The position numbers and the translations under genes are program-made. From Ceratodon purpureus (Eukaryota > Streptophyta > Bryopsida > Pseudoditrichales > Ditrichaceae): 64,000 bases of DNA. Location of the stretch: assembly GCA_014871385.1 (NCBI GenBank), contig CM026426.1, positions 36,953,918 through 37,017,917 on the forward strand, read 5' to 3'. The notes beneath the pieces are model-generated. The model had not been told where the DNA came from and searched no databases. It worked only from the letters and a program-made list of their open reading frames with translations. Position 1 is the stretch's first letter. The number at the start of each line of letters is the position of its first letter. Below, piece after piece: positions 19,510 to 64,000 of this stretch.

Positions 19510-20420
19510 TCGGAAACATAATTTGCCGGGGCCAGGACCAAACTAACATAAAGAAATCCCAAACTGGAATATCAAAATCTGACATTGCTCTGAGAACATG
19601 CTATTTCTAAATTCTAGGCATAAATCCAGACTGGATTATGATTCCAGGTGTTTTAATCTCGTACATTAATATTTACATTTAATTGATAAAAATAATAATA
19701 AAAAGGTGACAAAATCGAAACGCAAAGGTGAGAAGAGAATAATTAGAAGAATATAAGAGGATCAAGACGTACTAGATTGAAGATGATTAGAAGAAATATG
19801 AAAAAAACTAAATTTGGATATGGTGGAATGATTGTATATAAGGTATTTGTTTATAGATTAAGACTCATTTGGCGCTGGCCCCAAGAACTGAAGCAGCGAA
19901 TTTCAAGAAGGCAGAAACTTAAAAAATAAGAAGGGTAAAAAGAGAATATTTCAAAAAGATGTCCCTCGCCAGCTAAGCTCTACCTGACTACGTTCGCAGC
20001 TTTTTGCTTTTTTCACTTTTTAATGATATTTTAACACCTTTTTTCTTAAAACAAACAAAAAAGAGAATACTTAAAAAAAAGGATAGAGGAGCAAGTAGAA
20101 CTAGAAAAAGGACAATTGGAGGAAATTGAAAAACAATAAAAGAAGGACATGAACAAGAAGAATGGAAAGCCATTTCGCCAAAAATCATGGGGCTTGAGTT
20201 CATGCAATAGTTCAGCCATTGAACTGAATTCGCGAGATTAACTTAATTTGAAACTACACCATAAAGTCCTCAAGGTTTCCTGCTTTCAGGCTCCAGTATT
20301 TTACATGGTACTTTAGTAGCAACTAAGTTTTTCTGGATTGTCAATTGAATTCAACCAGTGACGTCGATAACTTTCACCAAGATAATGCAGATTCAACCAG
20401 TGACGTCATCCCGGGAGCTA
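19510..20420 (+). repeat. dispersed repeat R1, copy 1
   Basis: It shares long near-identical stretches with 22593-23010 and 23155-23600. Landmarks are GACTCATTTGGCGC (19863), AGAAGGGTAAAAAGAGAATA, GAATGGAAAGCCATTTCGCC (20160) and AACTACACCATAAAGTCCTC. The block 20057-20345 pairs with 22705-22995 with only scattered changes. It contains a degenerate palindrome copy (TGGCGCTGGCCCCA, 19870-19883). No coding capacity seen; the family is unnamed. Confidence 0.75.
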
Positions 20421-20583
20421 GAGTGAATGCTGTAAATCTTTGATACCGCTATTGATGACCCTCTATTTCATTATTCTAATCAGTTGAAATTTGTATGATT
20501 TTCCTGAATTTAGAGCAATCATGGTATAAGTTCATATTGATAGCCTCCTATTTCATTCATCAAATCACCGAAAATTGTAACAA

Positions 20584-20713
20584 CTTCCGGATTCACAAAA
20601 TTTGTTGCATCCAACAAATAAGCAAACAATTTCCTGAGAAAGCAAAAGATTTCCGATTCACAAAATTGGTTGCATCCAACAAATAAGCAAACTTCACTGA
20701 GTGCTTTTGTTTC
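20584..20713 (+). repeat. two direct copies of a 65-bp unit
   Basis: ATTCACAAAATTTGTTGCAT at 20591 recurs at 20656 with one change, each followed by CCAACAAATAAGCAAAC. A third, weaker trace is near 20775. No function seen. Confidence 0.75.
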
Positions 20714-20719
20714 TTTTAC

Positions 20720-22592
20720 AGTTATCCTCATTGGTAATAAAAGTGCCATTTTTCATAAAAAAAAAAACAATTAAGCAAGCAAATTCCTGAATAAGCAAAA
20801 GATTTCCTACCACTGAAATCAATATTCCAGTTTAGATTTGCTTTATGTCAAGTGGGCATGGGAACCCGTCAAGTTTGATGACGAGTTACGTCGATCCAAT
20901 TGATTTCACTCGTCACCAAGCTTGAGCTGGGGTCTTGCTCCCATTGACGAAATTAACTCTTCCAAGTGTTCAATACATAAGTGACCGCGGTGTAACTTAC
21001 AATCACAATGGGGTAAAGGAATTCGCATGCTTCCTCGCGTAAAAACTTATCAACTTTGTGTCTTCACCTAAATTCAATTGCAGACTTTGGAAAACAGATA
21101 CTGTCGAAACTTAAATTTGAATGCGAAATCCAGAATATTTGATCTTGAATACTTGAAAATGAAACTCACTTCAACAACCTGGCACTTACAACCTTGCGGC
21201 ATACCATCTGGTCTTTCAATGACCAATATAACAGTTTTTTGAATCTTCAACCAGGTGAAAATGAAACTCACTTCAACAAAGTTGCAAATGAAACTCACCT
21301 AAACAATCTTCAAATACGGTAATGACAGGGCTGCTAGCGGGACGACGTTTACCAAGCAGTATTAAAGAAATTCCTCTAAGGCGTCCGACTCCACAGACAA
21401 GCGGCTCCCACAAAGCCAGCATCTTAGGAGGAGCCAAGAACATAATTCAGCAGTCGAGAAGTCTATTTCATCTGCATTTTCTAAACTTGTTATTTCTAAC
21501 AGCCCTTCCACTTGCATTTTACCCTTCCCAATGCGCAATTACTAGGTTTGATGGCAAGTTTCTCTCAGCGAGAGGAAATTTATTCCTTCCCAAGTATAAA
21601 CACAATTAGATAGTCTCAAAGACAAATTAGGAGCATGTTTGCATCTACGGGTGTCGCTAGAAACATAAATGTAATTTACTCTAAGTGGAAGGGCCAATGA
21701 GGAGGACCGAGAAGGTCCAGCACAGAGCTATTTGATACCCAGTCCAAATGCAAAAGAATAAGAACAAATTCCAAAAGATGTTACAACCTCAATGCCTCAC
21801 CTTGGCTATATTCTACAAGATCTATGCACATCTTGATTGGATGAGATACAGTTTCAAGAAATAGTTGAAGGTATTCTTGCAATTGAAATTCCATCCTTAG
21901 GTCCAAACAGTGTCACCTGTACCAAGGAGAAATATTTCAGTCAATAGAATATTCTACAGTACCGAAGAGGCAAGCAAATGCATGTATTCAAGATATGTCA
22001 AGTTAACCAAGGTTTGTGATGATCGATGAAATTTGCAATGCAGTGTATATGACATGCGATTTAAAACACTTACGTTTTGATCTCGAGCAAATCGCCTAGC
22101 CAGCAAAATAGCAGCGTTCCGCTCCCTTTCGGACTCCAGTACAAGCATCAAGCTGAGGCTCTTATTGGCAACCCAATACAAGGCCTATGAGGCTGCTTGA
22201 CCTCCACCACGTGTTCCACAAAGCTGAAAAAGCCTTAACTTTATTAACTATTCACTTCAGACATGAAGAATTACCTAGATGCAATAAATAAGGAATTCAA
22301 CGACCTTAAGCTATAATTACAGCAGCAACAACTCTGAATGTTAAATGATAACATTTAAGAAAATTACCTGAATGATTGATGTATACTCTTCTTTGGCAAT
22401 TGTTTTCTGACCTTTGTGAAGCTTAATTCGAGTCCGATCAATAAGCATCACAAGAAGTAAAGGCTTCTCCAAAACCTCTCCATTTTGCTGAACCAATCTT
22501 ACCTGTTCCCCATGTTCAGAAACATGCCCATCCAATCAAATTTTCATGATTTTCAAACGAAGCAGAAAAGACCTATAATGACCTGAAACCTT
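20720..22592. other. non-coding stretch, no supported gene
   Basis: AT-rich with short unrelated ORFs. AAATGAAACTCACTTCAACAA recurs at about 21157 and 21259, with a third partial near 21286. The last CAGTGTCAC of the window is at 21908. Nothing else identifiable. Confidence 0.45.
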
Positions 22593-23010
22593 AAAAGATT
22601 ACGACTCATTTGGCGCCGGCGCCAAGAGGATTGGAGCAGCAAATTTTAAGAAGACAACATTAATAAAAAAAAAAAAAAAAAGGCAGAAATTGAAACGAAA
22701 GAAGAAGGGTAAATAGAGAATAATTAAAAGAAGGATAAAGAAACAAGTAGAACTAGAAAAAAGAGGATTGGAAGAAATTCAAAAACAATAAAAGAAGGAC
22801 AGGAACAAGAAGAATGGAAAGCCATTTCGCCAAAAACCATGGGGCTTGAGTTCATGCAACAGTTCAGCCATTGAACTGAATTCGCGAGATTAACTTAATT
22901 TGAAACTACACCATAAAGTCCTCAAGTTTCCTGCTTTCAGGCTCCAGTATTTTACATGGTACTTTAGTAGCAACTAAGTTTTTCCGGATTGTCAACTGAA
23001 TTTTTTTATT
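22593..23010 (+). repeat. dispersed repeat R1, copy 2, with a perfect palindrome
   Basis: It opens with CGACTCATT and the perfect TGGCGCCGGCGCCA at 22611-22624, then follows copy 1 through GGAAAGCCATTTCGCC and CTACACCATAAAGTCCTC. A run of A is at about 22663-22680. The higher palindrome quality than in copy 1 suggests this copy is closer to the ancestor. Confidence 0.8.
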
Positions 23011-23154
23011 TTTTGATTTTTTCTGAAGACACAGACTTCATTAGATTACTGTAAAACAAAAGTACTACTAAAATTATTTGTGTGTCGAGCCAGCTTGCAA
23101 GGCTTTCTTTGAGTATTCTCTTGTGGAGAATTTCATCAACAATCATAGCTCATC

Positions 23155-23600
23155 TCAACTTTCACCAAGTTAATGCAGATTCAACCAGTGACGTCACTAA
23201 CTTTCACCACGAAATTCGCCTTGGCCAGGACCAAACTGACAAAACCAAATCTCAAATTGGAATATTGAAATCTGACGTTGCTCTATGAACATCCTTTTTC
23301 GAGAGCGTGAAAAGAGAATATTTAGTAGAATTATAGAGGAACGTGGAGTATGAGAAATATAAAGATTAGAAGAAATTAAAGAAATAGTAGATTTCAATAT
23401 GGTAGATTGACTGTTTATAACGTAATTATCAAAAGATTAAGACTCATTTGGCGCCGGCGCCAAGAGGATAAAAGCAACGAATTATATGAAGACAACATTA
23501 TTTATTAAAATAAGAAAGGCAGAAAATCGAAACAAAAAATAAAGAAGGGTAGAAATGTGAATTATTTAAAGAAGCATAGAGGACCAAGATGAACCGGAAA
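23155..23600 (+). repeat. dispersed repeat R1, copy 3 (upstream module plus palindrome)
   Basis: The part before the palindrome (CAGTGACGTCACTAACTTTC, GCCAGGACCAAACTGACA) matches 19510-19600 and 20355-20410. It then reaches AAGACTCATT and TGGCGCCGGCGCCA at 23449 and continues as copy 2. Order and orientation are conserved among copies. Confidence 0.75.
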
Positions 23601-23614
23601 GAAGGCTAGAGTTT

Positions 23615-24600
23615 TTGCTCCATCATGATGCTGCTTTAGAATACTTAATATTCATTCTGCCGAGAAGGCTTGTCATATGCTTGGATGCTATTCATTATTG
23701 TTGGTGTTATGAACTTTCGGATGGTGTTTTTGGATGGACTTTTTTCTATTCACTTGCATTTGACATGGCTTCTGCAAAAAGGGTCTTGCAACACTGGCTT
23801 GTGAGGTATTTGCTTGGATTTTCGTCACTTGCTCTTCAAATAATTTGTTGTCTCACCACGCCCAGTTCTGCTTTGATTTTAAGGTGCTAACCTTATATTT
23901 TTGAGTGGAGCAATCCTCGAATTTAAGGTGTAATTATGAACTAATTCTCTGATCATATATTGTTGGTGCTTATCCAATGCTAAGGATTACACACCCATGA
24001 GGGAGAATATGATTGCTTTAATATATTAGTAGACAATAATTTGATGAACAGTAGATTTTGGATGCATCCTCCGATAGAATGCCTCTGTGAGAGTGACAAA
24101 ATCAATTAGTCTTAGGCTTGTTTACTAGTCTCAATATTGTTGGTCATTGGTTCACCGATATTTCAGCTATCGGAAACCCCACTTTTGACTAAAACATTTG
24201 TACTAAATTTAATTTTATTGCATTTGTTTAGGAAAAATGCTCATTCTTCATGATCTTTATGATACTACTAACGAAAAAGGACTCCTTATTGAAATTCTAA
24301 GATTGACTATCCTGAAATGCTTAAGTTATGGGTCGTAGGTGTGTGTACCTCAGTGCATTATTAGATTTTTTTATCAGTATGCTGCTCATGTTTGGTTGCG
24401 ATAGTCGGACCAGTTGATGTCGTTTGGAATTTTTAACCGTGAATCCTGGTGCTAAATAAAAAGTATTAACTGATAGATTGATAGCGTCCCTAGCCTTCTT
24501 TGATATACTCTAATGCAAGCAAATGCTTACAACCGACCTCTGTTCTTTTTATCCTTTGCTATTGGTAAAATTCTAAAACCTTTTGCAAAACATTGTGAGA
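23615..24600 (+). repeat. dispersed repeat R2, copy 1
   Basis: It shares GAACTTTCGGAT, GGCTTCTGCAAA, GGCTTGTGAGGTATTTGCTT and, further on, CAAATGCTTACAACCGACCT (24515) with copies at about 51.5-52.6 and 57.9-58.4 kb, in the same order and orientation. It spans about 1 kb. An ORF at 23615-23890 is a by-product of the repeat. Type unknown. Confidence 0.7.
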
Positions 24601-26213
24601 GATTTGCATAATTTTGAACACGTATCTAAGTTTGTAGTCTACTGACCGGGTTGAGATGGAGCGAGGCTTTGTACAAAAATGAACTTTAGGACTACATAGT
24701 TGAGAATGGAGAAATCAGACCGGATACAACCATTAGAATAGGTTAATAGGATCATTCTCAAAACAAATACATAGTTAAGTTGATCACATATCTCAAAATT
24801 GTCACTAGTATTAACGTCGGACAATAACGCTAAATAAATAGCAGGCCCAAGTGTAAAGGTCGAATGGAATGAAATTTGATGTTCTACTCGGCAGCTAACT
24901 AGCACTGGCAAGTCGAACTACGAAGTACAGAGTGTGTCTAGTCTAACCAATCTTGTGGAGTAACCCAGGTTTGTCCGGCCGAGGATTTATCCTTTGCCCT
25001 TACCGCCTTCTGTAGAGTGTTTCGGAGTCGCTGCAGCTAAATTAATTATAGCGCCTTTAATGGAGATAATAACTCCCTCCTGCGAAGTTTATGGTGTTTC
25101 TTGCAATGAACCCAAATCGCCTTCGAACGGGAGAAGTGATTAACATTCATCTTAAAATTTTGGACCGGATCTAACTTTCCAAAAAGAAGATGTGTTGGAT
25201 CTATATCCAACAAAGAATACCCTGCACAAGATGAATTTAGAATTAGATATCGTGGGAAATGGTACAAAATCGATGCACTATCAAAAAAAATTGACACAAT
25301 TTCAATGACACTTGCACCATGTTTGCATTTTGCACCAAGGCCGGATGATTCTGCTGCGTAGAGGTCGGCCTCCCATCTGCCCAATCGCCACGCTGCCCAT
25401 TCCACCGTCTCTTCAATTCTAGATTTCCAGAGGTTAGATGTTGCCTACAGTCTTCGAAGTCGGTGTAGGAGGATGACAATGGCATCATGATCACAGATAA
25501 TTTGCCTCCTGCGAAACAATGGAACCAAGAGCTTCGGAAAGATGTTCTGTACTATGACCTCGTCAGGGAGTCCCTCAATGAACGATATGTTTCCTGGATT
25601 GAGTAGAGGTAAATAACGAGGGTGTGTTCCACACCATATATACGCAGAGATAACACTTAGACTCGCGGCGGTCCCAAATTTCAGCCTGTCTGAAAAGGAT
25701 GGCGCCGGCGCCAAACGGATACATTGGAACGTTACTTTGAGATATTTATCCGTAATCGCCTTTGCAAATACCCCAAACCAAGAAATTATTTCTATATATC
25801 TGCTGTTCATCAAGCGAATTTGAACGGTCAATTGAAATCTTATCATTAAAACAGAATATCATGTGCGGTATTCCGCCATTGGCGGCTCTTGTTTTCGATA
25901 AAGTTGTCTTTTTTAACATATAAGTTGACAAAAAACGGATACTGAAATAAAAGCACATAATTGTCGACGTTAAACCCCTGTGACGAAGAGTACTGTCATG
26001 CCTCCAAATCTCATATTGGCGGTTAAAGTGATTGCGGCTGAAAAGTATATGTCAGCCATCAAATTTTCATTGGATTTATAAGATACGGCCTTTGATGGTT
26101 ACATTTCGAATTTGTTACTTGACACGAGCGGAGGTAAATGTGGAACTTGGGGTCAGGTATAAACCACCCTAAAGCTTCGGCATGCTTTAGTATGACTCTT
26201 CACTTCGCTTAGA
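24601..26213. other. non-coding stretch with one perfect palindrome
   Basis: The palindrome TGGCGCCGGCGCCA is at 25700-25713. Minus-strand ORFs of 70-133 codons (25046-25958) show no domain I recognise and overlap each other in different frames. No gene is supported. Confidence 0.45.
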
Positions 26214-26870
26214 ATGACCCCGCTCTATCTTGTCACTGGCTCGATCCAGTATGCGTTACACAACAGGTCACTCGATCAGCCACAAATTGGCAATATCTTG
26301 CTTCGCAAGCAGGATGCTTCCTCTGCAGTGGACTACTCACTATACGAGGGACCGGAGGACTTCTCTAGGAACTTAAAGACTTGGTTACTCAAAGTCTTAT
26401 CATGCCCAGTTCGATTTCAGGATCCTTCGATTGAAGTTTCAGAGCGCGCAGTGAGAAGGATGAAGTGTTTGATCTTGTATGTCTGGGAGGATGGCCATGG
26501 ATTTCGGGAAGCCCTTGGTGGCGGAATCTTGGCTCCTGAAGTGCCGCCTGGGGCGAGTAGTTATGATCCTCCAAGCAGAGAGGGTCACAATTGGCCAGGT
26601 GGAAACTGTATCGCATTGTGCTTCACTTAGGCCCTTGCACCTTTGGGTCCAATATTTCTAAGAGTTGACTTGTGGAAGGATGAATACTTTGACGAAGCGT
26701 ATGCCAAGCTTGGCGTCATTGCCATTGTTGATAGTTCGTTCACAGAAGAAGGCGAGCTGCGGACTATTTCATCCTGGAGGCGTGAGGGGGAGAGCTGGAC
26801 ATATAAAGGATCTATTAGTGGTCCGAAAGTGCAGAACGTGAACCCCACGATGAAGGCTGTCCATGTCTAA
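26214..26870 (+). pseudogene. hypothetical ORF of about 218 codons with one in-frame TAG
   Basis: The frame from ATG 26214 runs to TAG 26628-26630 and continues in the same frame to TAA 26868-26870. Both halves have ordinary protein-like composition (VRRMKCLILYVWEDGHGFRE; then FLRVDLWKDEYFDEAYAKLG). The TAG follows CFT and would be CAG after one C-to-T change, as in other genes here. No family recognised. It lies at the left end of the palindrome-marked region, on the plus strand, opposite to the RING genes. Confidence 0.5.
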
Positions 26871-29529
26871 CGGTCTACGTTTAGTTTCCGCAGGGAGAAA
26901 TGTGTGTTGTGAGTGGTTACGACACTGATTTGCTATATCACTGGGAATATGCGAGTCAGGTCGTAATTATAATTAGATATCTACGAATCACCATTTGAAG
27001 GGCATTTTAGTTTGAGAGGAGGCTTCAATTTCGGTGTCTTGGACAAGTTCGGGCGCTTCTTATATATTTCTCAGACTGCACACATATATTATGGTTGATT
27101 TTTCCTTCAATTCCGGGTCACCTCAATACACAGCTGAAGTTACGGCAAATTATATAGAACCTAGTTGCTGTGAAGGGATTTAATTCACATATGTATAATA
27201 AATTAACTTTGTTTTGAGTCTGTGTGTCGCCCATACAACGGACTACAGCTTCAAACTACTTTTATGAGGTCCATGAACTCTATCTTCGCTTGTGTATTTG
27301 TTTTTCAAATGTTATCTTCAGATTTGTGGAAACAACATGAATACTAATCTTGCTCCAAATGCTCGTCATGATTTATTTGGAGATGAGAGGTTTAGTTTTC
27401 TGAATGAGTGCAAAAATTCTGAACTTCAGTACGAGGTATTTTGATTTCATACGTAAATTTAAACCTGCACATATGACATTGGACTTGGCAAATGAGTCCG
27501 ACTTGCAATATGACTTGATAAATGACTAGTGCGATAGATGTTCAATGAGTATTCCTGAATGGACATCAGATTGGGGGGTCTAGATCACCAATGAGTTGTT
27601 GCTGGGGATTTATCATCCGTCGAAGGGAGGCCTCCGAAGCTGGATATGGTAGAGTGACGGATTATATGGTAATTAATTTATTAATATGAATCATTTGGCG
27701 CCGGCGCCAAGAGGACTAAAGTTGCGAACTTAATGCTTTAGAATCTTCATCTGAACAATATTCAAGTACGTTCTGAAATCTCACAGTCAAATTTCAAAGA
27801 TATTCTAAATTGTGTTTTAGAGATAACCTTTTCCAACATTATACCACTGCTTATGTTGCAGTTTCGCCTCCTAACTTATGAATTCAGATGTAGACTCATC
27901 TAACTAATCAATCAAAGCAAATCGCCCAACCTCGGCTACGGAACTGAGTTCCCAACACTCATGCATATACAATTCTCGAAAGTGAAATCCAACATAGAAC
28001 AGAACTGTAGCCATCACCAGCCCTATCAAGCAGTGGTCTCACCTTGTATACGCGGCTTAGTAGAGGGTGATGGCGTCGGCGCCAGGTGAGAGGATTGATC
28101 CTTACCGATGTGCCACGATGTCAAAGAGATGTTCCAGTGTCTCAAAATGAAACCATGGTTTATTATTTATTTTATTATGAAGGGTGAAGGGTGATATCCA
28201 ACAATCTTATTTTGCAAGGTCATATATTCTTTTTCATATTCTGATCAACATATTGAATTTGTTAAACTAAGATTCGTCCCATCTATAATCACAAGTAGTA
28301 GCAGTCGTGCAATTATGAGTCACGAATTGAATCTTGCATAGATTCTTATCTAAGGCAGACAAACCTTGCTTTAAGACTTAACAGAGCACATGTGGCGATT
28401 CCATCCATGCAACTTAACACTTCAAAATCTTCACCAGTATAACTGAAAATCACTGATAATGAATAGGATGAAAGGTTGAAAAATTTTAAGGGTCGTGGCG
28501 CCGGCGCAAGGTGGGAAGATCATAATACAAATTCTGTCTAAGTGCAAAGGCGGGAAGACCTTTGACCCTTTGGCACTCACACTCAAACTGCTATTATAAT
28601 CAGCACATCATTCTGCTGAATACTTTTGTTGATAAACATGGATATTTATTATATGCTGGGAATAGAGGTTTAATATGTAAACTTTTCTCGGTACAAAATG
28701 TATTCAGGGACAGACATTGTGATTACGCCGATTATGCTTAGGATAACAGGAGAGGCAAACATGACAAACTTTGGCTTTGGTCAGTATTACGGTTAGCAAG
28801 TTTGACTTAGTGTAGGCCATATAGAAGGGCTCAAATCCTATGATTTTAAAATCTAAATTTTAGGAAGAGACAAATGACTTTGACGGATGAAGAAGAGTCA
28901 GGGCTCAGAGAGAAGGAAACATATTGCAAAGTGAGATGGCGCCGGCGTCACGTCATAGGAAACAAGTGATCCTTTGAAAATCAAAAGTCTCTAATTCAAT
29001 ATGAATTGTCATCGTCACTTTGGTATTCCGATTGATCAATTAAAGTGTCCAAAAAGTCGGACGGCAATCTCATTCTTAAACTTATTGTGTGGGAGATTGC
29101 TATTCACATATTTTTCGAAAAGAAGGCTACTGACCAGCAGTAAAAGCATTGCTGTTCGAGTGAGACATGTTCTTGCAAAATTGCGAAATTTCATTCATGT
29201 TTCTAGCTAACACATTGCGCAGTGCAAGTGATTGGATAAAACACTGAAGTGTTAGAGGTAAAACATGTATTGGTAGCATTTAGAGCACCTATACTTTGTA
29301 ACACCTGGCATACTCCTGCATTGAAATGTTCTAAGAATGCACATCTACAAAACTCTTGGCCGCTTAAAAAGCGGCGTTGGCGGAGATTGACAACTTTTGG
29401 GGTCGGGGACAACTTGATCAGCATGAATACTCAGCACCTCGTTTGCTTCCTCCAAGTCTGTAAGAATGTTAGGCAAGACCTTCCATAGTTAGTGATTCGT
29501 CATTGTGGGAAATGATGAATCAATGCACA
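26871..29529. other. non-coding stretch with four palindrome copies
   Basis: Palindromes at 27696 (perfect), 28071, 28496 and 28937. Otherwise AT-rich, with no ORF that I can support. Spacing of 375-440 bases between the last three is the closest in this part. Confidence 0.55.
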
Positions 29530-30384: not shown

Positions 30385-31239
30385 TCTTGATATGCCGTTG
30401 ACACACTAGTGAATGAAGTTCAGTATTCCAGTGCTATAGTTCTGGTCTAAGGTGGGCAACCTTCGTGAATGAATTTCATTGGATTTACTCGATAGTAATG
30501 GCCGAGAGCATTGGGATCCTCCCCGAGTTCAATTGGCGCCGGCTCCATTCGACCATTAGCTCCAAATCTTCAAACTCAGCAAGATCTCTCTAGATACGAA
30601 TTGCATCGCGTAATCTGTCGAGAAGTACTAACCGTATCATTCAAAATCTGGCATATTACAACGCCGGCATCCTTTAGTACCTAGTTAGGGGTTTTTCTGT
30701 TGAAAAATCAAAATATCTTCCAGATCAGCTGGGGATTGAATTGTGATTCAAGCTCTTTAATATTCCAACGGATCTCAATTGCATGTGCTGGCATATTTTG
30801 CAAACGCACTTCGGGGTCATAGTGCCTCAGAGGGAGTGGTCAGGGCGTCCTTCTCGAGGCAGTGATGGCGCCGGCTCCAAACGAAGAGCGAAAAATTAAA
30901 CAATCAGAGATTTTGTGATCTCCTATTGCTCGCAATTTGAGAAAATATTTTATTTTACTCTCTGCTCCTACCCTGCCAACTCTTAGTTCTATCAATTCGT
31001 TTAATTTGTGGCACGGCAGCCATTTGTTATGTGAGGCCACACGATCTTGGTAATTTTCACTTCAGAGTAATGAATGTGGCGTCAGTGCCAACCGGATTTT
31101 TCGTTACTGTTCCCATATTAACGAGCCGATTTTGAAGAGACGTTGTAGCAATATTATGCAATCACTTCTTCTTCTTTCTTGAACGAGGACTTATTACTCG
31201 TTCATCTTTGTAGGAATTATATGAGCCATTCTGCCGGAA
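30385..31239. other. spacer with three decayed palindromes
   Basis: Palindromes at 30534, 30866 (both TGGCGCCGGCTCCA) and 31077. No supported gene. The identical GGCTCC form in two neighbouring copies suggests local copying of a variant rather than independent decay. Confidence 0.5.
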
Positions 31240-33492: not shown

Positions 33493-33539
33493 CACAATCA
33501 TGTAAAATTCACTATGTGTAGAATAGAAATCTGACTAGA

Positions 33540-53604: not shown

Positions 53605-56600
53605 TTGCCACAAGATATCATATCTCAGATACTGTTTGCTTTTAAGCAGAGTGATACTCGCATCAGCGATGACGCAGATTATGGGGAATCAAAACCAGAA
53701 AACGATGACGACGGTCGAGTCGAGACCACCTCTAGAAAACCCGATGTCAAGCCCACCGTGTCTACATTTGAGCAGTTTCAAGAGGCTTTATGTAGCCAAC
53801 TGAACATTCACAAGCGGCTTGCGGTGAAAAAGGTAAAGCCACTTCGTTTACAAATTCCTCTATGCAGATTGAAGCGGACGACCTGGGTTTGACAAGCATT
53901 GGAGGCAGATGTGCAAATCGTTCATGAAGGTTTTCATATCGGGGATTGGGGTGCCAATTTCTGGGTGACAAGCTGCGGTGATCCCGGTCCCTTCATATTA
54001 AAGGAGCTTTGAGGACGATGAGAGGTGGGAAGCAGTGTCTGCAAAATTCGACAAAGAACTCAGGGATCGATGCGAGAGTGACCCCGAAAATAGACTTATT
54101 TTGGAGAAGATAATAGGCCACTATGTAAATGTATGGGATGGGAACCATAGGGCCTTGGCATGGATGCGGCACATGAGAGAGTGCAATGGAGAGCCGATAA
54201 TGGTGAACTGCTTTGTTCTTAATGATTCTGAAGAGGACCGTGGCTGGATCTCGAATTTCATGCGTGATATTAACGAGTATGTCTTTGACCCATGCTACTC
54301 CAAATTCGTACCGGTTCATCCTATCTGTCCTTCTTTTTTATGCATTGTAAGGTACAAAATTGCGATATGGGAGCTGTAACTTGAAAGTAGTACTCTCATG
54401 GCAACATGGTGCTTCACAATAATCGGATACTGGGGTTCTGGTTTCTGAATGGGTTCTGACTGGTTTTCATTGATGGGAGTGAGTGGGTCATTACTAGTTT
54501 CGAACTCGTCCTTTAGTTGAAACGCTTATTGATTAGAGTCTAGTTTAGAGTCTGGACTGATTTTCCAATTGAGTTCTTTGAGTTTTTTTGTGAGAGCTTG
54601 AGCTTTGGAATGGCTTGCGCTCGAGCTCTTTTTGGCTGGGCGTCATACTTGGCTGCTTTGGAGGGCATTGCGTCCATGAGAGTTTCGATGGGTACTGTTT
54701 TTCAGGACATGGTCACTGTTGTCGTGCATATAGGTTATTTGCACATGGCATTGGAGAGTGGCAAGGCCGGTACTGATGCTCTTTGTAAGCTCTCTTTTGG
54801 AGTGTGGTGGCTATAACTTGCCCATGTTGACGTTCATTCGTGATAAGAATACATGTGAGACTGCAAGTTCTGCGATTGGAACTAATGCTAGATTTTAAAA
54901 TTAGTTCAAGTTCTGAAATAATTAGATGTGCATGCGGACGTCTGCCTGGTTATTCATGCCTGCGGTGTATGGCTGAGCCATCTCAGTCACAATTACTTTG
55001 ATTTCAGTTGGAAAAGGGCAAAATTGCTTTGAGTTTTTTGTGGCCCGCATCGGCATGCATACTTGTGGCATGAGGGTTATATAAAACTGACATAGTATCA
55101 AGATAAGTTTCAAATGTCTGGCCATTGCGATATTAACACTGGGTTATCTGAATTCACAGTGGGACAGTGAACTCAACGGTGAAGAAACAGTTGGCCTACA
55201 CAATTTTTGAAGTAATGCAAATTGCTAGTCGTGAATCCACTGAGTAAAAGGTCTACTTCACAGAGAGTGAGATTGAGCGCATCAAGGATGTTTGCAAGGG
55301 GCGCTGGTATAAGATGACGTGTGATGCTGTATGCAAAGTTTACTTCAAGGTAAGACATGTATTGTTTCTTTTGGTTTTTAGATTCCTGGTCAATCTGACC
55401 AAGGATCACCGAGGCTCGTTAGTGCCTCCCTCGGATTTATGACTTTGATATGATGACAAGTGCGAGGTCTTTCGTTCACTGATGAATATGCAGCTTGTGT
55501 TTTATTCTATTTTCAAGCCAGCTATTTAGGCCTGTTAGGGGGATGTACTGTGAATTCGTGTTCGCTTGAATTGGTAGTAGGGAGAATTGGGGATCTACTT
55601 CTGTCGGATTTAGTCCCTCTTAAGATGATTGATATTGTTGGTGCACTCTAAAGTAACCAATGCTGTCTGCCACAGTCAGAATCCCTGCCCCCTTCTGCCA
55701 ACTCGTTATAGCTGAGGGGGGTTGTTTAATAAACTTACCTTGAGACTAATTTGAGTGGCGGTTTCATTTCAATGCAGCGTGAAATAAGCATGGCGGAACG
55801 AGACTCCGTGAAAAGGCTGCAGAACAAAGTGAACAATCCAACGGCTTTGGCCATTGAGGACGCGAAGCACGCGGGCGCTCAGAAGATACGGAAGGAAAAA
55901 ATGGATTATATGAAAAAAAAATTTAGACTTTGCAACCCCAAATATCACCCGCATTTCATCGAGGAGCTGGTCAGTAACAGTCGCAGTCGATCAAGGGCCA
56001 ATGACAAGAGGATTGGCGCAATGACCGTTGACAACCTTAATATTCTCGTGGGAGCCTAGGGTGTTGACATAAAAAGAGTATTGGAGTTATGGAATTCCAG
56101 CAGTGCCGAGAAGAAGAAGTTCAGATTTCCAGACCGAGACTTCACGAGGGCCGCATTCCAAAAGTGGCTCAATCGGAGAGCCTAGTGGGAGCAGGTAACT
56201 TCTCCACCCTCCATTGGATTGCGAGTCTTATATATGATGAAGTCTTATATATGATGATGTCTTATATATGGATTGCTTTTTCCAATTTCATGGTTTGGTA
56301 TATTACTCTTTGAGGATAGGTCGGAATGTTTTGCATTACATCCCACAGCCATGCAGTCAGCTCAATGTCTTTAGGTACTGTTCCCATGTCTTCAACCCTA
56401 GTGTCTCTGAGCTGTGCTTTCTTTGTTTTGTTTCACGGTTGCATTCGCGGGTTGGTGCGGTCTTCAAGGAACTTCTCGGTAAAACCAAGCTGGAGAAAGG
56501 AATCGGTTTCCTTCGAGGAAAGACTTACACCGCGAAGCTGCGGGAAGACTACTTTGAGGATGTAATAATCTTTGGCTTTGACGAATTCTTCCCAGAGATC

Positions 56601-57869
56601 TTTACAATAGAGGGAGGACCTGTGCGCCACAAGACCTGGGAGGAACAGCCAAAATACGAGTTGGGGGAGAAGGCCGTTAAAAGGTGTGTCATGCGGTTCG
56701 AGCGGTGGCTTTGTGAGCAACTACTGATAAAAGGTGAAACCGGGAATTTAAAGGACTTCCCTATATTTCAGGACTGGCAACGTTGATCCGCCGACGGTTG
56801 CTTCACCCAGTACCAAGTAGATCGTTTTGATCCACCACACTTGAATAGCCTCGGATGGTATATTGAGGACATTGAAGGTGTAACCGAGTGCTACATCGAC
56901 ACCGTGGACAAGAACCTCCGTGATCAGGTGCTTCTGCAGATCTAGGCTACAATGGATGCAACTCTGGCAGAGAAGGCTGCGGTGCTCTCGGAGATACTGC
57001 AGATGGTCAAGTCATAGGTTGAGAGTTCCGTTTGAGATGGGAATGGCGCCCGTGACATGGTATCTCCCACCCCATTGTCTGACCTACTAGGTGCGCTTGA
57101 GGGTAGAGTCAGTTATGTTTACGTCCAGGTCACTAACAATGGGTTGCTGATGGATTATGGCCCCATTCTATTCACTGAGCTATAGGACATTATTGAATCA
57201 TCAAAACGCGGAGATATCTAGCAAAACGATGACGCGATAGATGCGATTAGAGGTGTTGTTGGCGACGTGTCGAAAATGGTGACTTCCAACGAAGACAATG
57301 ATCTCCAGTTTCTACTGGAGACTCAAGGAGAGCCCAAAAAGAGGGAGATTGAGGGTGAGCCAAGACAGGTTCGTGGAGGACCTACATTGCGGCCTGGCAT
57401 TGTCAAGGAGACACAAGAAGAGGAGGGCGGTTTAAACAGTCAAGTGGCACCCCAAAAACGACACCATTCGAAGCCTGCAAGGAAAAATCCCAAAGGTGGC
57501 GAGGATGCAATATCGCTCGTGAGATATATGGCACTCCCAGTCGATGGAGTGGCAGACACAATTAAATTATCCCTAAATCTCGCCTTGGAGTCTCTCCTTG
57601 AGGGCATTGATCGATCCATGTTCAAGACTTTTATGAATTGCATAAAGCATGTGAGTAATTATTGATCTCTGTTTGCATAAAGTTTGTTGACTGTATATGT
57701 ATCCCTTTCTCCTGGGTATGCATGCATGCAGTAGCATGATAAGCCATTCCTTTTTTGCTCTTTACATCATTACCAGACGTCTTCGGGATCAGTATGAGTG
57801 TAGAGCTATACTTCACAAATCCTTGGGCGTCTAGTCTGTGTATTGCTATGTGGCTCCTGACTTTGTATT

Positions 57870-58440
57870 TTCTTAGTGTCGGATAAGCTGAAAACGGACC
57901 GGTTTGCTTGTGATTGCTTGAGTTCTTTGCTTCGAAGAATGCTTGTCCACTGCTTGGTAGCTTTGCATTCCAGTTTTTGTTTAGGACTTTCGGATAGTGT
58001 TCTTTGGTCGCTTTATTTATCGTAACTTGCACTAGGGATGGCCTTAGCAAACTTTCTTAGTGTTGGATTAGCTAAAAGTGGACTTGTCTGCATGAGAATT
58101 CTTGAGTTCCTTGCTGCCGAGTATGCTTGTCATGTATCATGCAGCTTTCCATTATAGTTTCTGTTTTGAACTTTCGGATCGTGTGATTCAGTGGACTTGT
58201 TTTTCTTGTGATGGCTTTTGCAAACTAGGTCCTACAGCCGAGGCTCGTGAGGTATATGCTTGGATTTCGTGACTTGCTTGGATTTAGTTTTGCCTTATTT
58301 TTCAGATGCTTACCATGTGATTCTAAGTGGAGCAATTCCCGAATTGAAGGTCTAATTCCGAACTAGTTCTGTGATTGTTAGACTTGGTGCTTTCCCAAGG
58401 CTCTTGTAGTTTTCGAATTGTTCAAAATACTGCACAAGTC
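57870..58440 (+). repeat. dispersed repeat R2, copies inside an intron
   Basis: Two adjacent R2-like units (CTTAGTGTCGGATAAGCTGA at 57873 and CTTAGTGTTGGATTAGCTAA at 58053) follow the same order as 23615 and 52030. They occupy the intron between the 57.65-kb and 58.94-kb exons of the ParB/methyltransferase gene. Confidence 0.7.
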
Positions 58441-59282
58441 ACATTGCTTTAGATTCTGCTTAGGAAGCAGTCATCAAATATACTTTTGTTCCAGATGGCG
58501 TCGGCGCCATCAGCAAGTCCTTTACTCTTTTTTCCAACTGGTCGACTACTGTTTCTCTACATGATGGCAATGGCATAACACTTTTGGTGTCATGCTTTCC
58601 GAGTATCTGAAACTTGGTGTTACTCATTCATTTTGGATGCAGTGAATTGACTTTCTTCTTTCCCAAATCACACATTCTGTATTTGCTTGCCTGTGCTTTT
58701 GATTTGTTTCAAGGTCTATTTTTCGAGGTGTTATGTTGGGGTTTCTGTGGAGCTTCTCGCGCCTAGTGTGTGAATTTGCAGAGAAATGATTCATTTCTTT
58801 CTCGAACTCATCCATTATATTATCATGGCACTGGCGCCATTTGAACCATGCTTATCATGATCGCTTGATACCTACTCCTCAACTCTCTGCCATATCGTGA
58901 TGTTACTTTCTAACATGGCTTTTGTGTACCTTTCAGATCAACGGTGGCAAGCTCCGGCAGCATGATGGGGTAGCTAGCCGCAACTGCGTCGGTTTGATTA
59001 TTTGCGATACACCGGATAATAACAGGGTGCCTGGTGTCTTGGGAGGAGTTCCAATGTCGAACATGGTGAAGAAGTCATATTTCACATTGCCGAGGCGGTC
59101 CTGTCACACTCCGGATTCCTCCTACTCTTTGTGCCAGCAGAGGAGCTCGATGACCTAAATGCGCTCCATGATTGGGACTGTGTGCGAACGTTTCACGTTG
59201 TGAATCAGAGGCCATTTACTCCAGCCTGGGTAAGATAGTTGTACAAAGTTGCAGAATTTAAAGCCTATTGAGGCGAGGGGGG

Positions 59283-59610
59283 TTTGAGTCTAATGAGCCG
59301 CTTCAGTTTGAGTCCAACGCACATCCTTATTTTGAGTCTGAAGGCTCTGCGATACTCGCCCGTACATATGGTTGGATATTAGAATGCGCTGCTGGATCAA
59401 GGATGCTCATGCTAATAATCTGTCCCATTTCATCTGAGTAGATGGAACCCTATTTCATGGTAGTTGTTAATGATGATGCCGATGCGAGCATGAAACTTTG
59501 AATTAGATGTGTTGGTCCTTGATTCGGATATTTTGTGGCGCCACATCTTGATTGATTGTCGACTCACATCCCTTCCTCATGTGAGGTGACGTCGGCGCCC
59601 TCACATAATG
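59283..59610 (+). repeat. dispersed repeat R3, copy 2 (no MITE)
   Basis: Pairs with 50674-51290 minus the MITE. It lies in the last intron of the ParB/methyltransferase gene and holds a decayed palindrome at 59588 and a half copy GTGGCGCCAC near 59536. Confidence 0.8.
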
Positions 59611-59920
59611 TAAAACGAATATCCATGTGGATTTATCTCAAAGTGTAGGAATTCACGTAACTGATTATGTGATGTGACGTTTTTCAGAAACGGTTGTTCA
59701 AGGCAAAGGTTCTACGAAAAAGGAGCATGAAAAAAGCGTTCCATTTCAATGAAATTGCGACTAAAGTCATGGACTGGAACCCGGACCAATCTGATGTCCT
59801 TTAGAACGTTGTAACCGACGACAACCTTCTGCGAGTGGACGGGGTTGACTCATTCCGGGGATCAAAACAGAAGTCGCCCGCGTTTATGGAGTCTATGGTT
59901 GAAATTTGCACCGAAAGGGG

Positions 59921-59961
59921 AAGCGCGGTGCTTGACTTGAGTAGAAGCGCGGTGCTTGACT
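59921..59961 (+). repeat. 24-bp tandem duplication in methyltransferase motif I
   Basis: AAGCGCGGTGCTTGACT occurs at 59921-59937 and 59945-59961, period 24 bases. It inserts eight codons in frame into the VLD...GxG region that would bind S-adenosylmethionine, and the expected Gly-x-Gly is not visible. Confidence 0.8.
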
Positions 59962-60197
59962 CCTCTGTGTCTGCATGTGAACTCAGTGGACGTCACATCC
60001 TTGCGATGGAGGAGGATGCATCACCCTTTCACGTGTTCTTGAAAGAGATTTCTGTTGAGCCTGACCTAGACATTGCACAAGAGGACAACCGGCTTCTCTG
60101 TCTTCAAGAGCACCTTGGCAATGTCGGTAGTTTTGCCTCGCAATCTAAACCCTCCATAAGCGGGACCTCTTATGGAATCGCAAGCACTGCTACTTAA

Positions 60198-60519
60198 TAA
60201 AGTGGTGAGTTTCTTTATAGGAAGAAAGGAGGTGATTGAGAATTGTAGACTAAATAGTCCATTTCTACTTAGCATGTGTATAAGAAATCAAACTATCTGT
60301 AACCTAGATATGATTGCAATAAAATGACTGCCGACAGCATCAACTAATTTCTTCACGGCTTCTCAGTCTCCATACACGGCTTTTCCAATCAGTGCAAATA
60401 GTCTCAAAATCCATATCCAAAACAATGGGCTGCTCTACTAGACATCACCTTTGCATTGAGCTTCGGTTCTACATAGTTTGCAATGCTTTACATGAGACTC
60501 CTTAGACTCGTGTCGATAG
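60198..60519. other. spacer, no supported gene
   Basis: AT-rich tail after the ParB/methyltransferase gene. CAATAAAATG at about 60318 could serve as a polyadenylation signal for it. Nothing else seen. Confidence 0.35.
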
Positions 60520-61048
60520 TCACTCACCTATTTCGTCCTCACTCACAATATCTGCCCAGAACTTTGTGATACCTTGTAAGACGTCCTCTACTGCATCTGA
60601 TCCGACGTCTTCTCGCTGATGACCACCTGCTGAGACAACAAATGCGGGAACTTCCCAAAGGGGTATCGAAGGAACCAAAGGTAACGTCATAGCATCGGCG
60701 GTCTCCAGCCCAATTATCCTAGGGGCAAAGTCGAATGGATTGTTACTCTTCACATGGCAAAGACAGGCACATTCTGCGTAGCACAGTTTTAAAGGGAGAT
60801 TACATTGAAACAATCTAATTGAATACATCGCTACTTCACAACAAGAATGAACGTCAGAGGCGCGATTCAATCTAAGCCTCAATATATGTAAGCAGCAACC
60901 GGATAGGTGACCTTGATCGCAAGCACGTACCAGCACAACCCTTTCCTATGTCGGTTTCAGTCCTTTTGATGTCTGCAGCTCCCATACGCCATGTTCTTCG
61001 CGCCCTCTTCAAAGGTGCCTTCTTCGCTCTCCGCCGGGTGGCCGCCAT
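60520..61048 (-). CDS. hypothetical two-exon gene with basic N-terminus
   Basis: Exon 1 (61048-60931) starts MAATRRRAKKAPLKRARRTW, strongly basic, and ends at a GTACGT donor. Exon 2 (up to about 60760, ending at 60520 with TGA) has APRIIGLETADAMTLPLVPS and an acidic C-terminus (DIVSEDEIGE). The acceptor is not fixed; several AGs lie at 60735-60790. No family recognised. The basic start could bind nucleic acid. Confidence 0.4.
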
Positions 61049-61606
61049 CGCGAATCGGTGACTGAGAAAATGCGAAGTGGTATTCAAGGTCCAGTACATG
61101 GTCACAGTGTAGAGGACACAGCTCTTAGTGTTGGGAGCGATGACTTCCGTTATTGCAGTGTACAATTACCGTGGTGACACGCACCAAATCTATACTACTG
61201 TAGTTAGTGAGGCCGGATATGGCAGAAGCGCCGTATAGAGGTTAATGTCTTTCCGTTTAGATCCCCTTTGATATTCAGTAATGGCAATTTCCGTGATTAG
61301 AGCAGTTCAAAAAGAACCGACTTGGAATCAGAATCGAAATTAAATTAAGTGCCGCGGATTATCATGTTCTGACGTAAGTTCCCTTTGTCACATCTCAGTT
61401 GATTAACTCCGTCTAAGTTGGTGACTACTTTGAATGATTATAATATTCTTGGAATCCACTACCGTTTGTATCACCAACGAAAAGTTGATGACTTAGCGAT
61501 TATCGTTCGCATGTCCACCCCATCCGTGGATTAGTATGTTCTGCCTAAGAGCTCTACAATTTAAATCCCTCTGAAAGCATGCCTTGCCTCATTTTTTGCG
61601 TCTGGT
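61049..61606. other. spacer, no supported gene
   Basis: No ORF or motif stands out, and no palindrome copy is present in this piece. Confidence 0.35.
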
Positions 61607-62254
61607 TTGAAATTGTGTACCGTGATGGTTAAGAGGAAGCAGCCTGGCATGGTCATTGCCGTGGGTAGTACATGCAACCCTCCTCTAAGGAGCCAGGAAG
61701 TAGATGCGATGCTTGAGGGTAATGCGTTGGAGTGGAATGATTTTGGAGGGTCCGCACAAATTCTCTGTGATGATAGTGACAATAGCGACTCCGACTTTGA
61801 ACCAAATGTAGATTCCATATTTTCAAGACGTGTCTTGACAATCGGTTGGTTTCGAGCCTTGTCTTCAAGTCGACTGTTCAGATTGCTAAAGTTGATTTTG
61901 CCTCAATTGGATCCTTGTTCAGGGCAATGCTTTTCATGGTCTTGTATCAAAGTCGAGATCAGTATCAACTCTTTTCCTTATAAACCCCACTTTATCCTAA
62001 TTCTCGGATCTAGCATTGGTCCAATTTCAGACCGGGCTGTTCTGGAGCTGAACCGCGACGTGGGGAGCCTTCTTCTACGACAAGTACTGATTACAAGGCA
62101 CATCACAGGACGCCTGACATTGCAAGTCTTGCATTTCTGGCAGCTAGACGAGAGCGCTTGGACTTGGATTCATCGTGGTACTGCGCATTACCTAGTTACT
62201 GAGGGTCAGTTGTGGGAGGAAGTTGAAGTTCAGCCCACGCATTGTGAACTATAG
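61607..62254 (+). CDS. hypothetical protein, up to 215 residues, acidic patch
   Basis: ORF ending at TAG. It contains LEGNALEWNDFGGSAQ and the acidic run CDDSDNSDSDFEPN in the first third; the second part (QVLITRHITGRLTLQVLHFW; ending QLWEEVEVQPTHCEL) may be a separate exon. Possible splice points lie near 61820-62010. No family recognised. It is the last ORF before the final palindromes (62526, 63019). Confidence 0.35.
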   Translation: MKLCTVMVKRKQPGMVIAVGSTCNPPLRSQEVDAMLEGNALEWNDFGGSAQILCDDSDNSDSDFEPNVDSIFSRRVLTIGWFRALSSSRLFRLLKLILPQLDPCSGQCFSWSCIKVEISINSFPYKPHFILILGSSIGPISDRAVLELNRDVGSLLLRQVLITRHITGRLTLQVLHFWQLDESAWTWIHRGTAHYLVTEGQLWEEVEVQPTHCEL

Positions 62255-64000
62255 ATATACTGTTATCAATGTCATGCATGGTCATTGAGTTTGCGCTTGT
62301 CATAGTGGTTCACCCCATACAACATAGTTGGATTGCTTTGGTGATTAGTTGAACTTGTCTCCTTAGTGATACTATCTGATTTTTGTTTATGTCCGGCTTA
62401 TACAATGGCGAAAGCATTCTTTTCTGGGGATTGACATGTTCGTGAAGAGGCCATAGCCTATAGAATAAACATTTGTTCCAGATGGACGAGGTCTAGTAAA
62501 TAGGCCAGGTCAATGAGCCTTCAAATGGCGCTGGCGCCACCCACAGGCCAGTGAGGTCTACAGATCCAAGTCACCTTTGAGGATGCAAAGTTGCAGCAAA
62601 TTTTATGCCATTTTCCGTTGGCTAGTCACTGCACTCAGACATTTTGTTATTAGAGTTTGATATGTATAACGATGTTAGTTTGTAACACTAAGCAAACTGA
62701 TGTGTAATGCTAGAGGCTACTAATCTGACAGCAAGCTTTTGTCAGTAGCTTATCTCAAAACACTATTGTGTCCTCCACTGACGATGCTCTAGAGAGCCAG
62801 GATTATGCCAAGTCTTTCCATGGTGTATTGCATACTCTTTGGTTTTTGTAGGCAGCATATCTGGGTTACTTTAGTTCAGAAGAGCCCGTTTCATGGTTAT
62901 TCAATTTTTGGATGAATTTGTTTGCGGTTCATAATAAGCGTTCGACCGTGACTGTCTCAAAGCCTGAAGACCTTTTGCCTCTTGATTTCGGAAAAGTTTG
63001 TGATATGACCTTCCCACCTGGCGCCGGTGCCATCTCCTTCCTGTTTCAATCCATACATTGTATTGTATATGTATTGTACTGTGTATTCGTATCGTATGTA
63101 TGTCAATTGGATGAATATTGGATGATATTTGGGGTGATACATTTTGGACGATGTTTATCTATACGGTCTGTATTTCTGGCCTTTTATTTTTGGAGACAGT
63201 ATTTTCACGCGGATGATATCGTCAGCGGACAATGAATGTGTCGTTTGCACTCCTTACGAGATATTGCTCGTGGCTGACAGCCTGTCACGCCGCAGGCCTA
63301 CGCGCACTTCCAACGACGCACTCTTGAACCACTGCCTCCGTCCCAGTTTAGCAAAAAGTACCTGATGGCGACAGGTTTTCACGCTTGGTGCACGTTCAGA
63401 GCGAGGGTTCGAACTTTGAGAGTTCCGCAGAATTCTGAGTGCTTAGAGTCACAAAGGACAATAGCGGGCCCGCCAGACTGCCCAGTCATCGTGTGGACTA
63501 GGTCGAAGCAGAGCTTTTGATGTGCGTACTCCGATGGTACCAGATCCTACGTGGATCAGCGACATCCTACGTGGCTTCCCGAATGTGGTTAGACTTACCT
63601 CCGGCTGCTGTTTTACCACCCCTCTGCGTATATAACTTCAACCGTCAGATTCTGATGTCATCGCACGGTGACCATTCCGCTGCCTGTGCGAATCCTAAGT
63701 GGGACTTGGACTGGGGACCTCGCTCTGGGTATGTGGCAGCCGTGTGTCAATTCCACACGTAGACGAACCATCACTGTTCCCGCGAATAATTCTCGGGTTC
63801 AGAGTGCTCTGATTGCGTTGATTCCCGTGGAGACGCGTGGCGATGTGTGTTCTTGTCGGCATGGACTGCTATATGCGACGGGGTGCTTTTCCTCGACATT
63901 GGTGGATACGACGTTTTTTTACAGAACGACTGCACTAGTTGAGTAGAGGCTGCAATGAATTTATTGCACTTCCATTGAATTTAAAGTATTTGCATATTGC
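62255..64000. other. right end of region B and unassigned tail
   Basis: The last palindromes are at 62526 and 63019. After about 63.2 kb the base composition rises in GC and no palindrome or R-family repeat is seen, so the edge of region B may be near 63.1-63.3 kb. A TATA-like TATATAA is at 63629-63635; ORFs around it (63517-63762, 63668-63946) show no domain. The tail could be another element or host DNA. Confidence 0.4.

What the first reader, a model, noticed from the sequence alone, without database searches (positions are those of the whole stretch)
19870..63032. A 14-bp palindrome scattered about 27 times across 43 kb, confined to one genomic block
TGGCGCCGGCGCCA and decayed forms recur from 19.9 to 63.0 kb, seven of them perfect, outside the recognised exons, at mean spacing near 1.6 kb. 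A 14-mer should not recur by chance. Flanks differ between many copies, so the palindrome is the selected or copied unit. It is absent from the gypsy insert and from the first 19.8 kb, so it belongs to the block, not to the genome at large. The changes are mainly C-to-T at CG steps, which suggests that the sites are methylated. Candidates: binding sites of a transposon-encoded protein (transposase, RING or ParB-like), nucleation sites for a ParB-like protein, or target of the encoded methyltransferase.
Basis: partly seen in the sequence, partly recalled or inferred. Interest (0 to 1): 0.9.

Follow-up and report, generated by a model that had tools for sequence, protein, structure and literature searches.

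The report
Giant moss transposon with repeated palindrome
The scattered 14-letter palindrome is a real, selectively kept DNA signal belonging to a family of very large jumping genes (about 52 to 63 kb) in a moss genome, most likely a site where one of the element's own proteins sits on its own DNA.

Summary
The palindrome is real and non-random (30 matches within 3 mismatches against 1.13 expected). The window lies in a 362-Mb genome, almost certainly the moss Ceratodon purpureus, with 793 exact copies and none of the reversed control. Of 100 listed sites of one pattern, 83 lie within 50 kb of a ParB-like gene of one mobile element; on four contigs 75 of 92 are near an element gene against about 3 at random. 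The element is a discrete DNA transposon: a left end shared by diverged copies, 9-bp target duplications at three insertions, end-to-end lengths of about 52.5-62.7 kb. It encodes a transposase of about 1,480 aa (C1 copy), RING proteins, a ParB-like and a methyltransferase-like product. The window copy (about 18.98-63.34 kb) is decayed and split by a gypsy insertion. The signal is a dyad, TGGCGC-2 bp-GCGCCA, often paired 130-260 bp apart and kept even inside the transposase frame: in ten aligned loci 2 of 48 arm columns vary against 55% of flank columns. Best reading: a homodimer-binding site by which the element recognises and activates or un-silences itself. The binder is not identified; membership of the Mutator superfamily is unproven.

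The parts
18979..63340 (.). Old copy of the giant transposon, interrupted by a gypsy element; left edge approximate, right end about 63339-63340
   Evidence: Similarity to two other places starts at 18979; right terminus aligns with that of the C1 copy; no 9-bp duplication found for this copy
63293..63339 (+). Right terminus of the element (CAGGCCTACGCGCACT... )
   Evidence: Aligned to the terminus of the C1 copy, which recurs on C4 and C8
34983..35873 (-). Transposase, C-terminal part with SWIM-like CxC..CxH (by eye)
   Evidence: tblastn 55% identity to the 1482-aa open frame
36467..37360 (-). Transposase, middle part (71% identity)
47811..49064 (-). Transposase, zinc-finger and first catalytic part by eye (64% identity), separated by the gypsy insert
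37377..47898 (-). Gypsy LTR retrotransposon inserted in the transposase gene (not part of the system)
   Evidence: LTRs 97.6% identical, 5-bp duplication ACCGC
29533..30405 (-). RING-finger gene, copy a
   Evidence: 56% identity to C1 copy RING protein; RING match below cut-off
33543..34427 (-). RING-finger gene, copy b
   Evidence: 48% identity
24941..25591 (-). Small conserved element gene, F-box-like by eye
   Evidence: 51-55% identity to C1 copy
53617..54282 (+). ParB-like gene exons, frame broken in the window
   Evidence: model of the C1 relative resembles ParB/Noc/sulfiredoxin, weakly
55158..57653 (+). Further conserved exons downstream of the ParB-like exons
58937..60041 (+). DNA-methyltransferase-like exons (N6_N4_Mtase, weak)
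   Evidence: Pfam PF01555 E=0.0027, below cut-off, for the C1 relative
61895..62242 (+). Last conserved element gene found before the right end
   Evidence: 51% identity
19870..19883 (.). palindrome, 2 mismatches
22611..22624 (.). palindrome, perfect
23449..23462 (.). palindrome, perfect
25700..25713 (.). palindrome, perfect
27696..27709 (.). palindrome, perfect
28071..28084 (.). palindrome, 1 mismatch
28496..28509 (.). palindrome, 1 mismatch
28937..28950 (.). palindrome, 1 mismatch
30534..30547 (.). palindrome, 1 mismatch, upstream of RING gene a
30866..30879 (.). palindrome, 1 mismatch, upstream of RING gene a
31620..31633 (.). palindrome, perfect
33052..33065 (.). palindrome, 2 mismatches
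34609..34622 (.). palindrome, 1 mismatch, between transposase end and RING gene b
36371..36384 (.). palindrome, perfect, in the decayed linker region of the transposase gene
50571..50584 (.). palindrome, perfect, upstream of the transposase
51452..51465 (.). palindrome, 2 mismatches
51595..51608 (.). palindrome, 2 mismatches
51996..52009 (.). palindrome, 1 mismatch
52343..52356 (.). palindrome, 2 mismatches
58496..58509 (.). palindrome, 1 mismatch
58826..58839 (.). palindrome, 2 mismatches
62526..62539 (.). palindrome, 1 mismatch
63019..63032 (.). palindrome, 1 mismatch, about 310-320 bp from the right end

Best explanation
The block is an old copy of a giant DNA transposon family (three copies measure about 52.5-62.7 kb end to end, with 9-bp target duplications, short imperfect terminal inverted repeats and a large single-exon transposase frame). 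The palindrome is a dispersed dyad, TGGCGC-NN-GCGCCA, kept by selection on DNA, and is most likely the binding site of a homodimeric protein encoded by the element. Many sites lie in pairs about one nucleosome-length apart. The protein probably binds all along the element and marks it as self, activating its genes and counteracting host silencing, much as VANC proteins do for VANDAL transposons. Shown: the element, the dyad, its concentration in the family, its conservation at DNA level. Inferred: that a protein binds, that the element encodes it, and the activating or anti-silencing role.
For: Element: 16 other places start to match at query bases 2655-2659, 13 left ends aligned; right end in four places; duplications CCTTGGGCA, AAATATTGA, TTCAATTCC, 3 of 3 insertions with both flanks read; 32 scored transposase matches (two of them at the one C1 locus), 31 of 32 with a ParB-like gene within 10 kb. 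Concentration: 89 sites inside three copies, 1 outside in about 41 kb; 83 of 100 listed sites near element ParB-like genes. Dyad: 49 exact half-site pairs at a 2-bp spacer and none at spacers 0, 1 and 3-7 in three blocks; two central bases variable. Selection: in an alignment of ten transposase loci 2 of 48 arm columns vary against 55% of 288 flank and 43% of 546 other CpG columns; at both coding sites all ten copies keep all 12 arm bases, synonymous third positions included, and one copy has Val for Met through a change just outside the motif. Placement, two copies compared: RING gene -453/-241 and -454/-222, transposase start -806 and -853, near transposase end +90 and +78. Pairing: 20 gaps of 130-260 bp against 7.0 expected, 0 of 5000 simulations.
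Against: No binding, methylation or expression data. No element protein was shown to bind DNA, and no VANC relative was looked for. 17 of 100 listed sites are not near a listed element gene; the one solitary site read (L001) matches an element region, the others were not examined. Placement also disagrees: several sites around the RING and transposase starts have no counterpart, and the second RING gene differs (-803/-1231 against -382/-561/-1015); agreement was not tested against chance. Conservation rests on three lineages and four sites. Arm invariance in the 79-site tally is partly by selection, since sites were picked within two mismatches. A plain activator (operator network) without anti-silencing fits equally well.
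Confidence: 0.5

Rival explanations
1. The sites are internal binding sites of the transposase itself (or of the complex that pairs the ends of a 50-kb element), so they serve transposition rather than expression.
For: The transposase is well conserved and has zinc-binding motifs by eye; the outermost sites lie about 0.3-1.0 kb inside the ends.
Against: The ends carry different sequence and sites run through the whole element, inside a coding frame too; paired spacing and some kept gene-relative positions look regulatory. Enrichment at the ends was not tested formally.
Confidence: 0.17
2. A ParB/parS-like or self-modification system: the ParB-like protein loads at the palindromes and spreads, or guides the linked methyltransferase to mark the element's own DNA.
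Confidence: 0.15
3. The palindrome is a site for a host transcription factor (for example an E2F-type factor) that the element has collected to be expressed.
For: GGCGCC-containing sites resemble E2F sites (recalled); some positions upstream of genes are kept.
Against: T-runs next to the arms, as in E2F sites, are not prominent in the base counts, and the two half-sites have a strict 2-bp spacer; 47 of the first 50 exact sites lie within 60 kb of another. Host genes near sites were not examined.
Confidence: 0.12
4. The palindrome is a passive copied repeat (duplicated with local segments or itself mobile) without function.
For: Some window copies share flanks because of local duplication (19870, 22611, 23449, 27696); repeated subterminal segments exist in some copies.
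Against: Flanks differ in most copies; at homologous sites the arms change far less than flanks or other CpG columns, synonymous positions included.
Confidence: 0.04

Closest known systems
VANDAL transposons of Arabidopsis and their VANC anti-silencing proteins (PMC5735166, PMC10398659; passages seen)
   Same: Transposons with degenerate terminal repeats whose copies are enriched in a short family-specific motif; the motif is read by an element protein that removes silencing.
   Different: VANC motifs are 8-9-bp words arrayed in one orientation in tandem repeats of noncoding DNA and differ between families; here the motif is a 14-bp dyad, dispersed singly and in pairs over 50 kb, also inside coding sequence, and shared by subfamilies about 55-70% alike in transposase.
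Mutator-like elements (MULE, Pack-MULE; size limits in PMC6431247, passages seen)
   Same: 9-bp target duplication, short inverted termini, zinc-finger/DDE-CxxH/SWIM-like transposase layout by eye (definitions recalled).
   Different: About 52-63 kb with several genes, whereas the review says that no Pack-MULE of the 2004 survey exceeded the 7-kb full-length element; no Pfam MULE match.
Bacterial ParB/parS and Noc/NBS (recalled)
   Same: ParB-like protein encoded beside many dispersed palindromes of similar length.
   Different: Eukaryotic transposon; binding untested; fold match weak; linked to a methyltransferase-like gene.
Starship-type giant transposons of fungi (recalled)
   Same: Tens of kb, cargo genes, discrete ends.
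   Different: Starships use a tyrosine recombinase; here the 9-bp duplication and protein layout point to a DDE transposase (not proven).

Membership tests
Mutator-like (MULE) superfamily | 9-bp target site duplication | tested here: met
   3 of 3 insertions with both flanks read: CCTTGGGCA (C8), AAATATTGA (C4), TTCAATTCC (C1, across an assembly gap); none found for the window copy, whose left end is unclear
Mutator-like (MULE) superfamily | terminal inverted repeats | tested here: inconclusive
   18 of 19 bases match between another subfamily's left end and the inverted right end, 13 of 15 with the same subfamily's own left end
Mutator-like (MULE) superfamily | transposase recognised by the MULE profile (Pfam PF10551) | tested here: not met
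   No MULE hit for the 1482-aa protein at E<=1; the 150 scored genome matches of PF10551 (of 384 candidates) include none at the element's transposases
Mutator-like (MULE) superfamily | DDE with CxxH signature and SWIM-type zinc finger | tested here: inconclusive
   Patterns seen by eye; structure model too poor to test (pLDDT 33); motif definitions recalled
VANDAL/VANC | family-specific motif enriched in the element and rare elsewhere | tested here: met
VANDAL/VANC | motif in tandem arrays of noncoding DNA | tested here: not met
   Mostly dispersed, partly in coding sequence
VANDAL/VANC | VANC-family protein encoded | not tested
   No VANC sequence was fetched for comparison; Pfam gave nothing above cut-off for the element proteins scanned
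ParB/parS-type system | ParB N-terminal fold | tested here: inconclusive
ParB/parS-type system | specific binding of the palindrome and CTP hydrolysis | not testable with these tools
   Needs protein
Endogenous giant virus | viral hallmark genes or viral relatives | tested here: inconclusive
   No relatives of the transposase, ParB-like or RING-2 proteins confirmed in viral contigs, none of the ParB-like protein in phages; not all ORFs were scanned for hallmark genes

The most novel reading that the evidence does not exclude
A eukaryotic giant transposon that has domesticated a bacterial-type ParB-like plus DNA-methyltransferase module and seeded its own 50-kb body with about 30 parS-like palindromes, even within its transposase gene, so that a sliding or spreading protein coats, marks and protects the whole element from host silencing.
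Probability: 0.12. Interest if true: 0.95.

Novelty: new variant of a known kind. Interest (0 to 1): 0.78.

Why it matters
DNA transposons of this sort are usually a few kb; copies of 52-63 kb with open transposase frames and near-identical relatives on other chromosomes raise the question of how so large an element is moved, kept active and recognised as self. A dispersed, selection-maintained dyad gives a direct handle: it predicts one dimeric binder, probably element-encoded, and makes self-recognition by a transposon testable with one DAP-seq experiment. Half of the listed element ParB-like copies (46 of 92) lie on the 110-Mb contig, so the family may matter for the growth of a plant sex chromosome.

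Tried and rejected
Structure of the transposase core: AlphaFold2 from nine relatives gave pLDDT 33, not used. Solved-structure sequence searches with the transposase, ParB-like and RING-2 profiles: one chance hit (E 0.19), none, and mostly coiled-coil chains with one RING protein at E 0.065. Protein search for the transposase in 5.8 billion proteins: none at E<=0.001; the ParB-like and RING-2 proteins have 11 and 7 relatives there, nearly all unnamed, one named from Ceratodon purpureus. Rfam and tRNA scans of the window: nothing. Uniform genome distribution: rejected. Even spacing: rejected for the C1 copy, coefficient of variation 1.10, but short pairs are over-represented. A flank preference (CA at -4/-3, mirrored TG) occurs on one side or the other but not jointly (3 seen, 5 expected); I make nothing of it. 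CpG depletion as a sign of methylation: no clear difference from surroundings. I first read the codons of the in-frame sites as proof of synonymous constraint; since sites were picked by the motif that is circular, and the claim now rests on the alignment of homologous loci. The 46-kb tandem unit at C1:20.28-20.36 Mb is probably not a true tandem element: it straddles a 10-kb N gap and the flank after its first right end equals that of the C4 copy apart from one A, so the assembly looks chimeric there. Left end and duplication of the window copy: not found. The genome-wide count of TGGCGCNNGCGCCA did not complete. Papers: 'Ceratodon purpureus' with 'MULE' gave one paper, unrelated by title; 'moss, giant, DNA transposon, MULE, palindromic' (10 of 23 listed), 'Mutator-like, giant transposon, plant' (2) and 'ParB, DNA methyltransferase, transposon, moss' (2) showed none on this family by title and abstract start. 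The library holds open-licence papers only, so absence from print is not claimed beyond that.
Full report
Observation. The 14-mer TGGCGCCGGCGCCA occurs 30 times within three mismatches in the window, 7 of them exact, against 1.13 expected; none of 100 shuffles reached 30. All but one weak match lie from 19,870 to 63,032; the next 30 kb to the right hold none within two mismatches.

Genome. The window is C6:36,953,918-37,017,917 of a 362,488,568-base genome; C6 is 110,524,308 bases. A review describes Ceratodon purpureus as about 360 Mb with U and V sex chromosomes of more than 100 Mb each, about 30% of the genome (PMC8000587, passages), and the only named relative of the ParB-like protein is a C. 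purpureus protein on a 112,179,120-base contig. I take the window to be from a sex chromosome of this moss, probably the V (inference; exact V length recalled).

Distribution. The genome holds 793 exact copies and none of the reversed control. Of the first 50 listed (all on C1), 47 have another within 60 kb. The pattern with one added G has 101 forward and 83 reverse matches, of which the first 100 are listed (C1, C3-C6 up to 92 Mb); 83 of 100 lie within 50 kb of an element-type ParB-like gene and 0 of 100 near a distant ParB-like family of 43 genes; on C1, C3, C4 and C6, 75 of 92 are near an element gene against a random mean of 2.9 and maximum of 8 in 300 draws. The other 17 were not examined one by one. 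One solitary exact site that was read (C1:130,006) lies in a relic with 73% identity over 300 bases to the C1 680-kb copy.

The element. Blocks on C1 (680-730 kb; 20.255-20.375 Mb) and the window share a set of genes in like order at roughly 35-80% protein identity per segment. A 1482-aa open frame has 32 scored relatives (more candidates were not scored), one on C8 identical and 18 of the 32 main rows without stops (two of the rows belong to the same C1 locus). A DNA search shows 16 other places whose match begins at query bases 2655-2659, from 99% down to 72% identity; 13 left ends align at GAGGTAG or GAGATAG with unlike flanks. The right end occurs in four places. Reading the flanks gives 9-bp duplications for C8 (CCTTGGGCA), C4 (AAATATTGA) and C1 (TTCAATTCC); C1 fixes the right boundary and C4 the left, so the length is 9. 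End-to-end lengths are 62.7 kb (C8), 52.5 kb (C4) and about 52.8 kb (C1, across a gap); the insides of the C8 and C4 copies were read only around the transposase. Inverted termini are short and imperfect (18 of 19 bases in one comparison, 13 of 15 in another). The C1 locus contains a 10-kb N gap and what looks like a misjoined contig end.

The signal. In three blocks exact half-sites TGGCGC and GCGCCA pair 49 times at a 2-base spacer and never at spacers 0, 1 or 3-7. The two central bases vary between sites. In the 79 sites within two mismatches the arms are nearly invariant, but that is partly by selection of the sites. The independent test is the alignment of ten transposase loci (three lineages): 2 of 48 arm columns, 1 of 8 centre columns, 55% of 288 flank columns and 43% of 546 other CpG columns vary. 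Two of the four aligned sites are inside the transposase frame; there all ten copies keep all 12 arm bases, third codon positions included, and read MAPAP, or VAPAP in one copy, whose base change lies just outside the 14-mer. The 680-kb copy has three such in-frame sites; the window copy has no open frame there. So selection acts on DNA rather than on the peptide or on CpG as such. At a given locus the centre also tends to stay the same, so the spacer is tolerant between sites rather than freely drifting.

Placement. Overall spacing in the C1 copy is as irregular as random, but gaps of 130-260 bp are about three times too frequent (20 against 7.0; 0 of 5000 simulations). Between the two C1 copies, measured from a shared peptide to the site centre, the RING gene has sites at -453/-241 and -454/-222, the transposase start at -806 and -853, and a peptide near the transposase end at +90 and +78. 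Other sites near these anchors have no counterpart (for example -1375, -1892 and -2370 before one transposase only), the second RING gene differs (-803/-1231 against -382/-561/-1015), and agreement was not tested against chance. This is compatible with regulatory sites beside genes plus sites within and after genes.

Mechanism. Shown: a discrete giant transposon family, a dyad concentrated in it, and strong DNA-level constraint. Inferred: a dimeric binder encoded by the element; activation or anti-silencing of the element. The nearest working analogue is VANC on VANDAL elements, where an element protein binds a short family-specific motif and removes silencing (PMC5735166 and PMC10398659, passages). 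This differs in being a dyad, dispersed, partly coding, and shared across deep subfamilies. Rivals are transposase binding, a ParB/parS-like or self-methylating system, and a host factor.

Window copy. It spans about 18.98-63.34 kb, has broken frames in the ParB-like and methyltransferase-like exons, and is split by a gypsy insertion with 97.6% identical LTRs. Its palindrome mismatches are spread over the whole motif (4 of 22 at the centre), in contrast to the C1 copies (20 of 30, 9 of 19), as expected when constraint is lost.

Novelty. A review passage states that no Pack-MULE of the 2004 survey exceeded 7 kb and that transposition falls with cargo over 6 kb (PMC6431247). Literature searches showed no description of this family in the listings seen, within a limited library.

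Noticed in passing
window 37377-47898: Gypsy element with LTRs of about 743 bp, 97.6% identical, 5-bp duplication ACCGC, inserted in the transposase gene.
   Followed up: partly
G000 C12:6.070-6.080 Mb, C1:27.689-27.696 Mb, C9:16.140-16.150 Mb: Sequence like the window's 19-21 kb region recurs in repeated segments, about every 1.24 kb (some 1.57 kb) on C12, every 1,046 bp on C1, irregularly on C9; reminiscent of VANDAL tandem repeats.
   Followed up: no
G000, 43 places sorted: A second, distant ParB-like gene family (23-33% identity, frames of 203-387 aa), none within 50 kb of the 100 listed palindromes; could be another mobile family.
   Followed up: partly
G000 C4:10525231, C6:40233231, C6:103713328, C8:11128538, C8:12968547, C10:12820519, C11:17228494: Seven ParB-like copies with identical scores, suggesting a recent burst of one subfamily.
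   Followed up: no
G000 C1:20315461-20326864: Likely assembly chimera: contig end carries the flank of the C4 copy before a 10-kb N gap.
   Followed up: yes
window 2737-2994 and 50835-51092: A 258-bp repeat 96% identical, one copy outside and one inside the element.
   Followed up: no
G000 C1:719953-721425 and 722544-723335 (L011/L012): Two RING-like open frames lie 1.5-5 kb outside the left terminus of the 680-kb copy (C1:718414), so related genes occur beyond the element.
   Followed up: no
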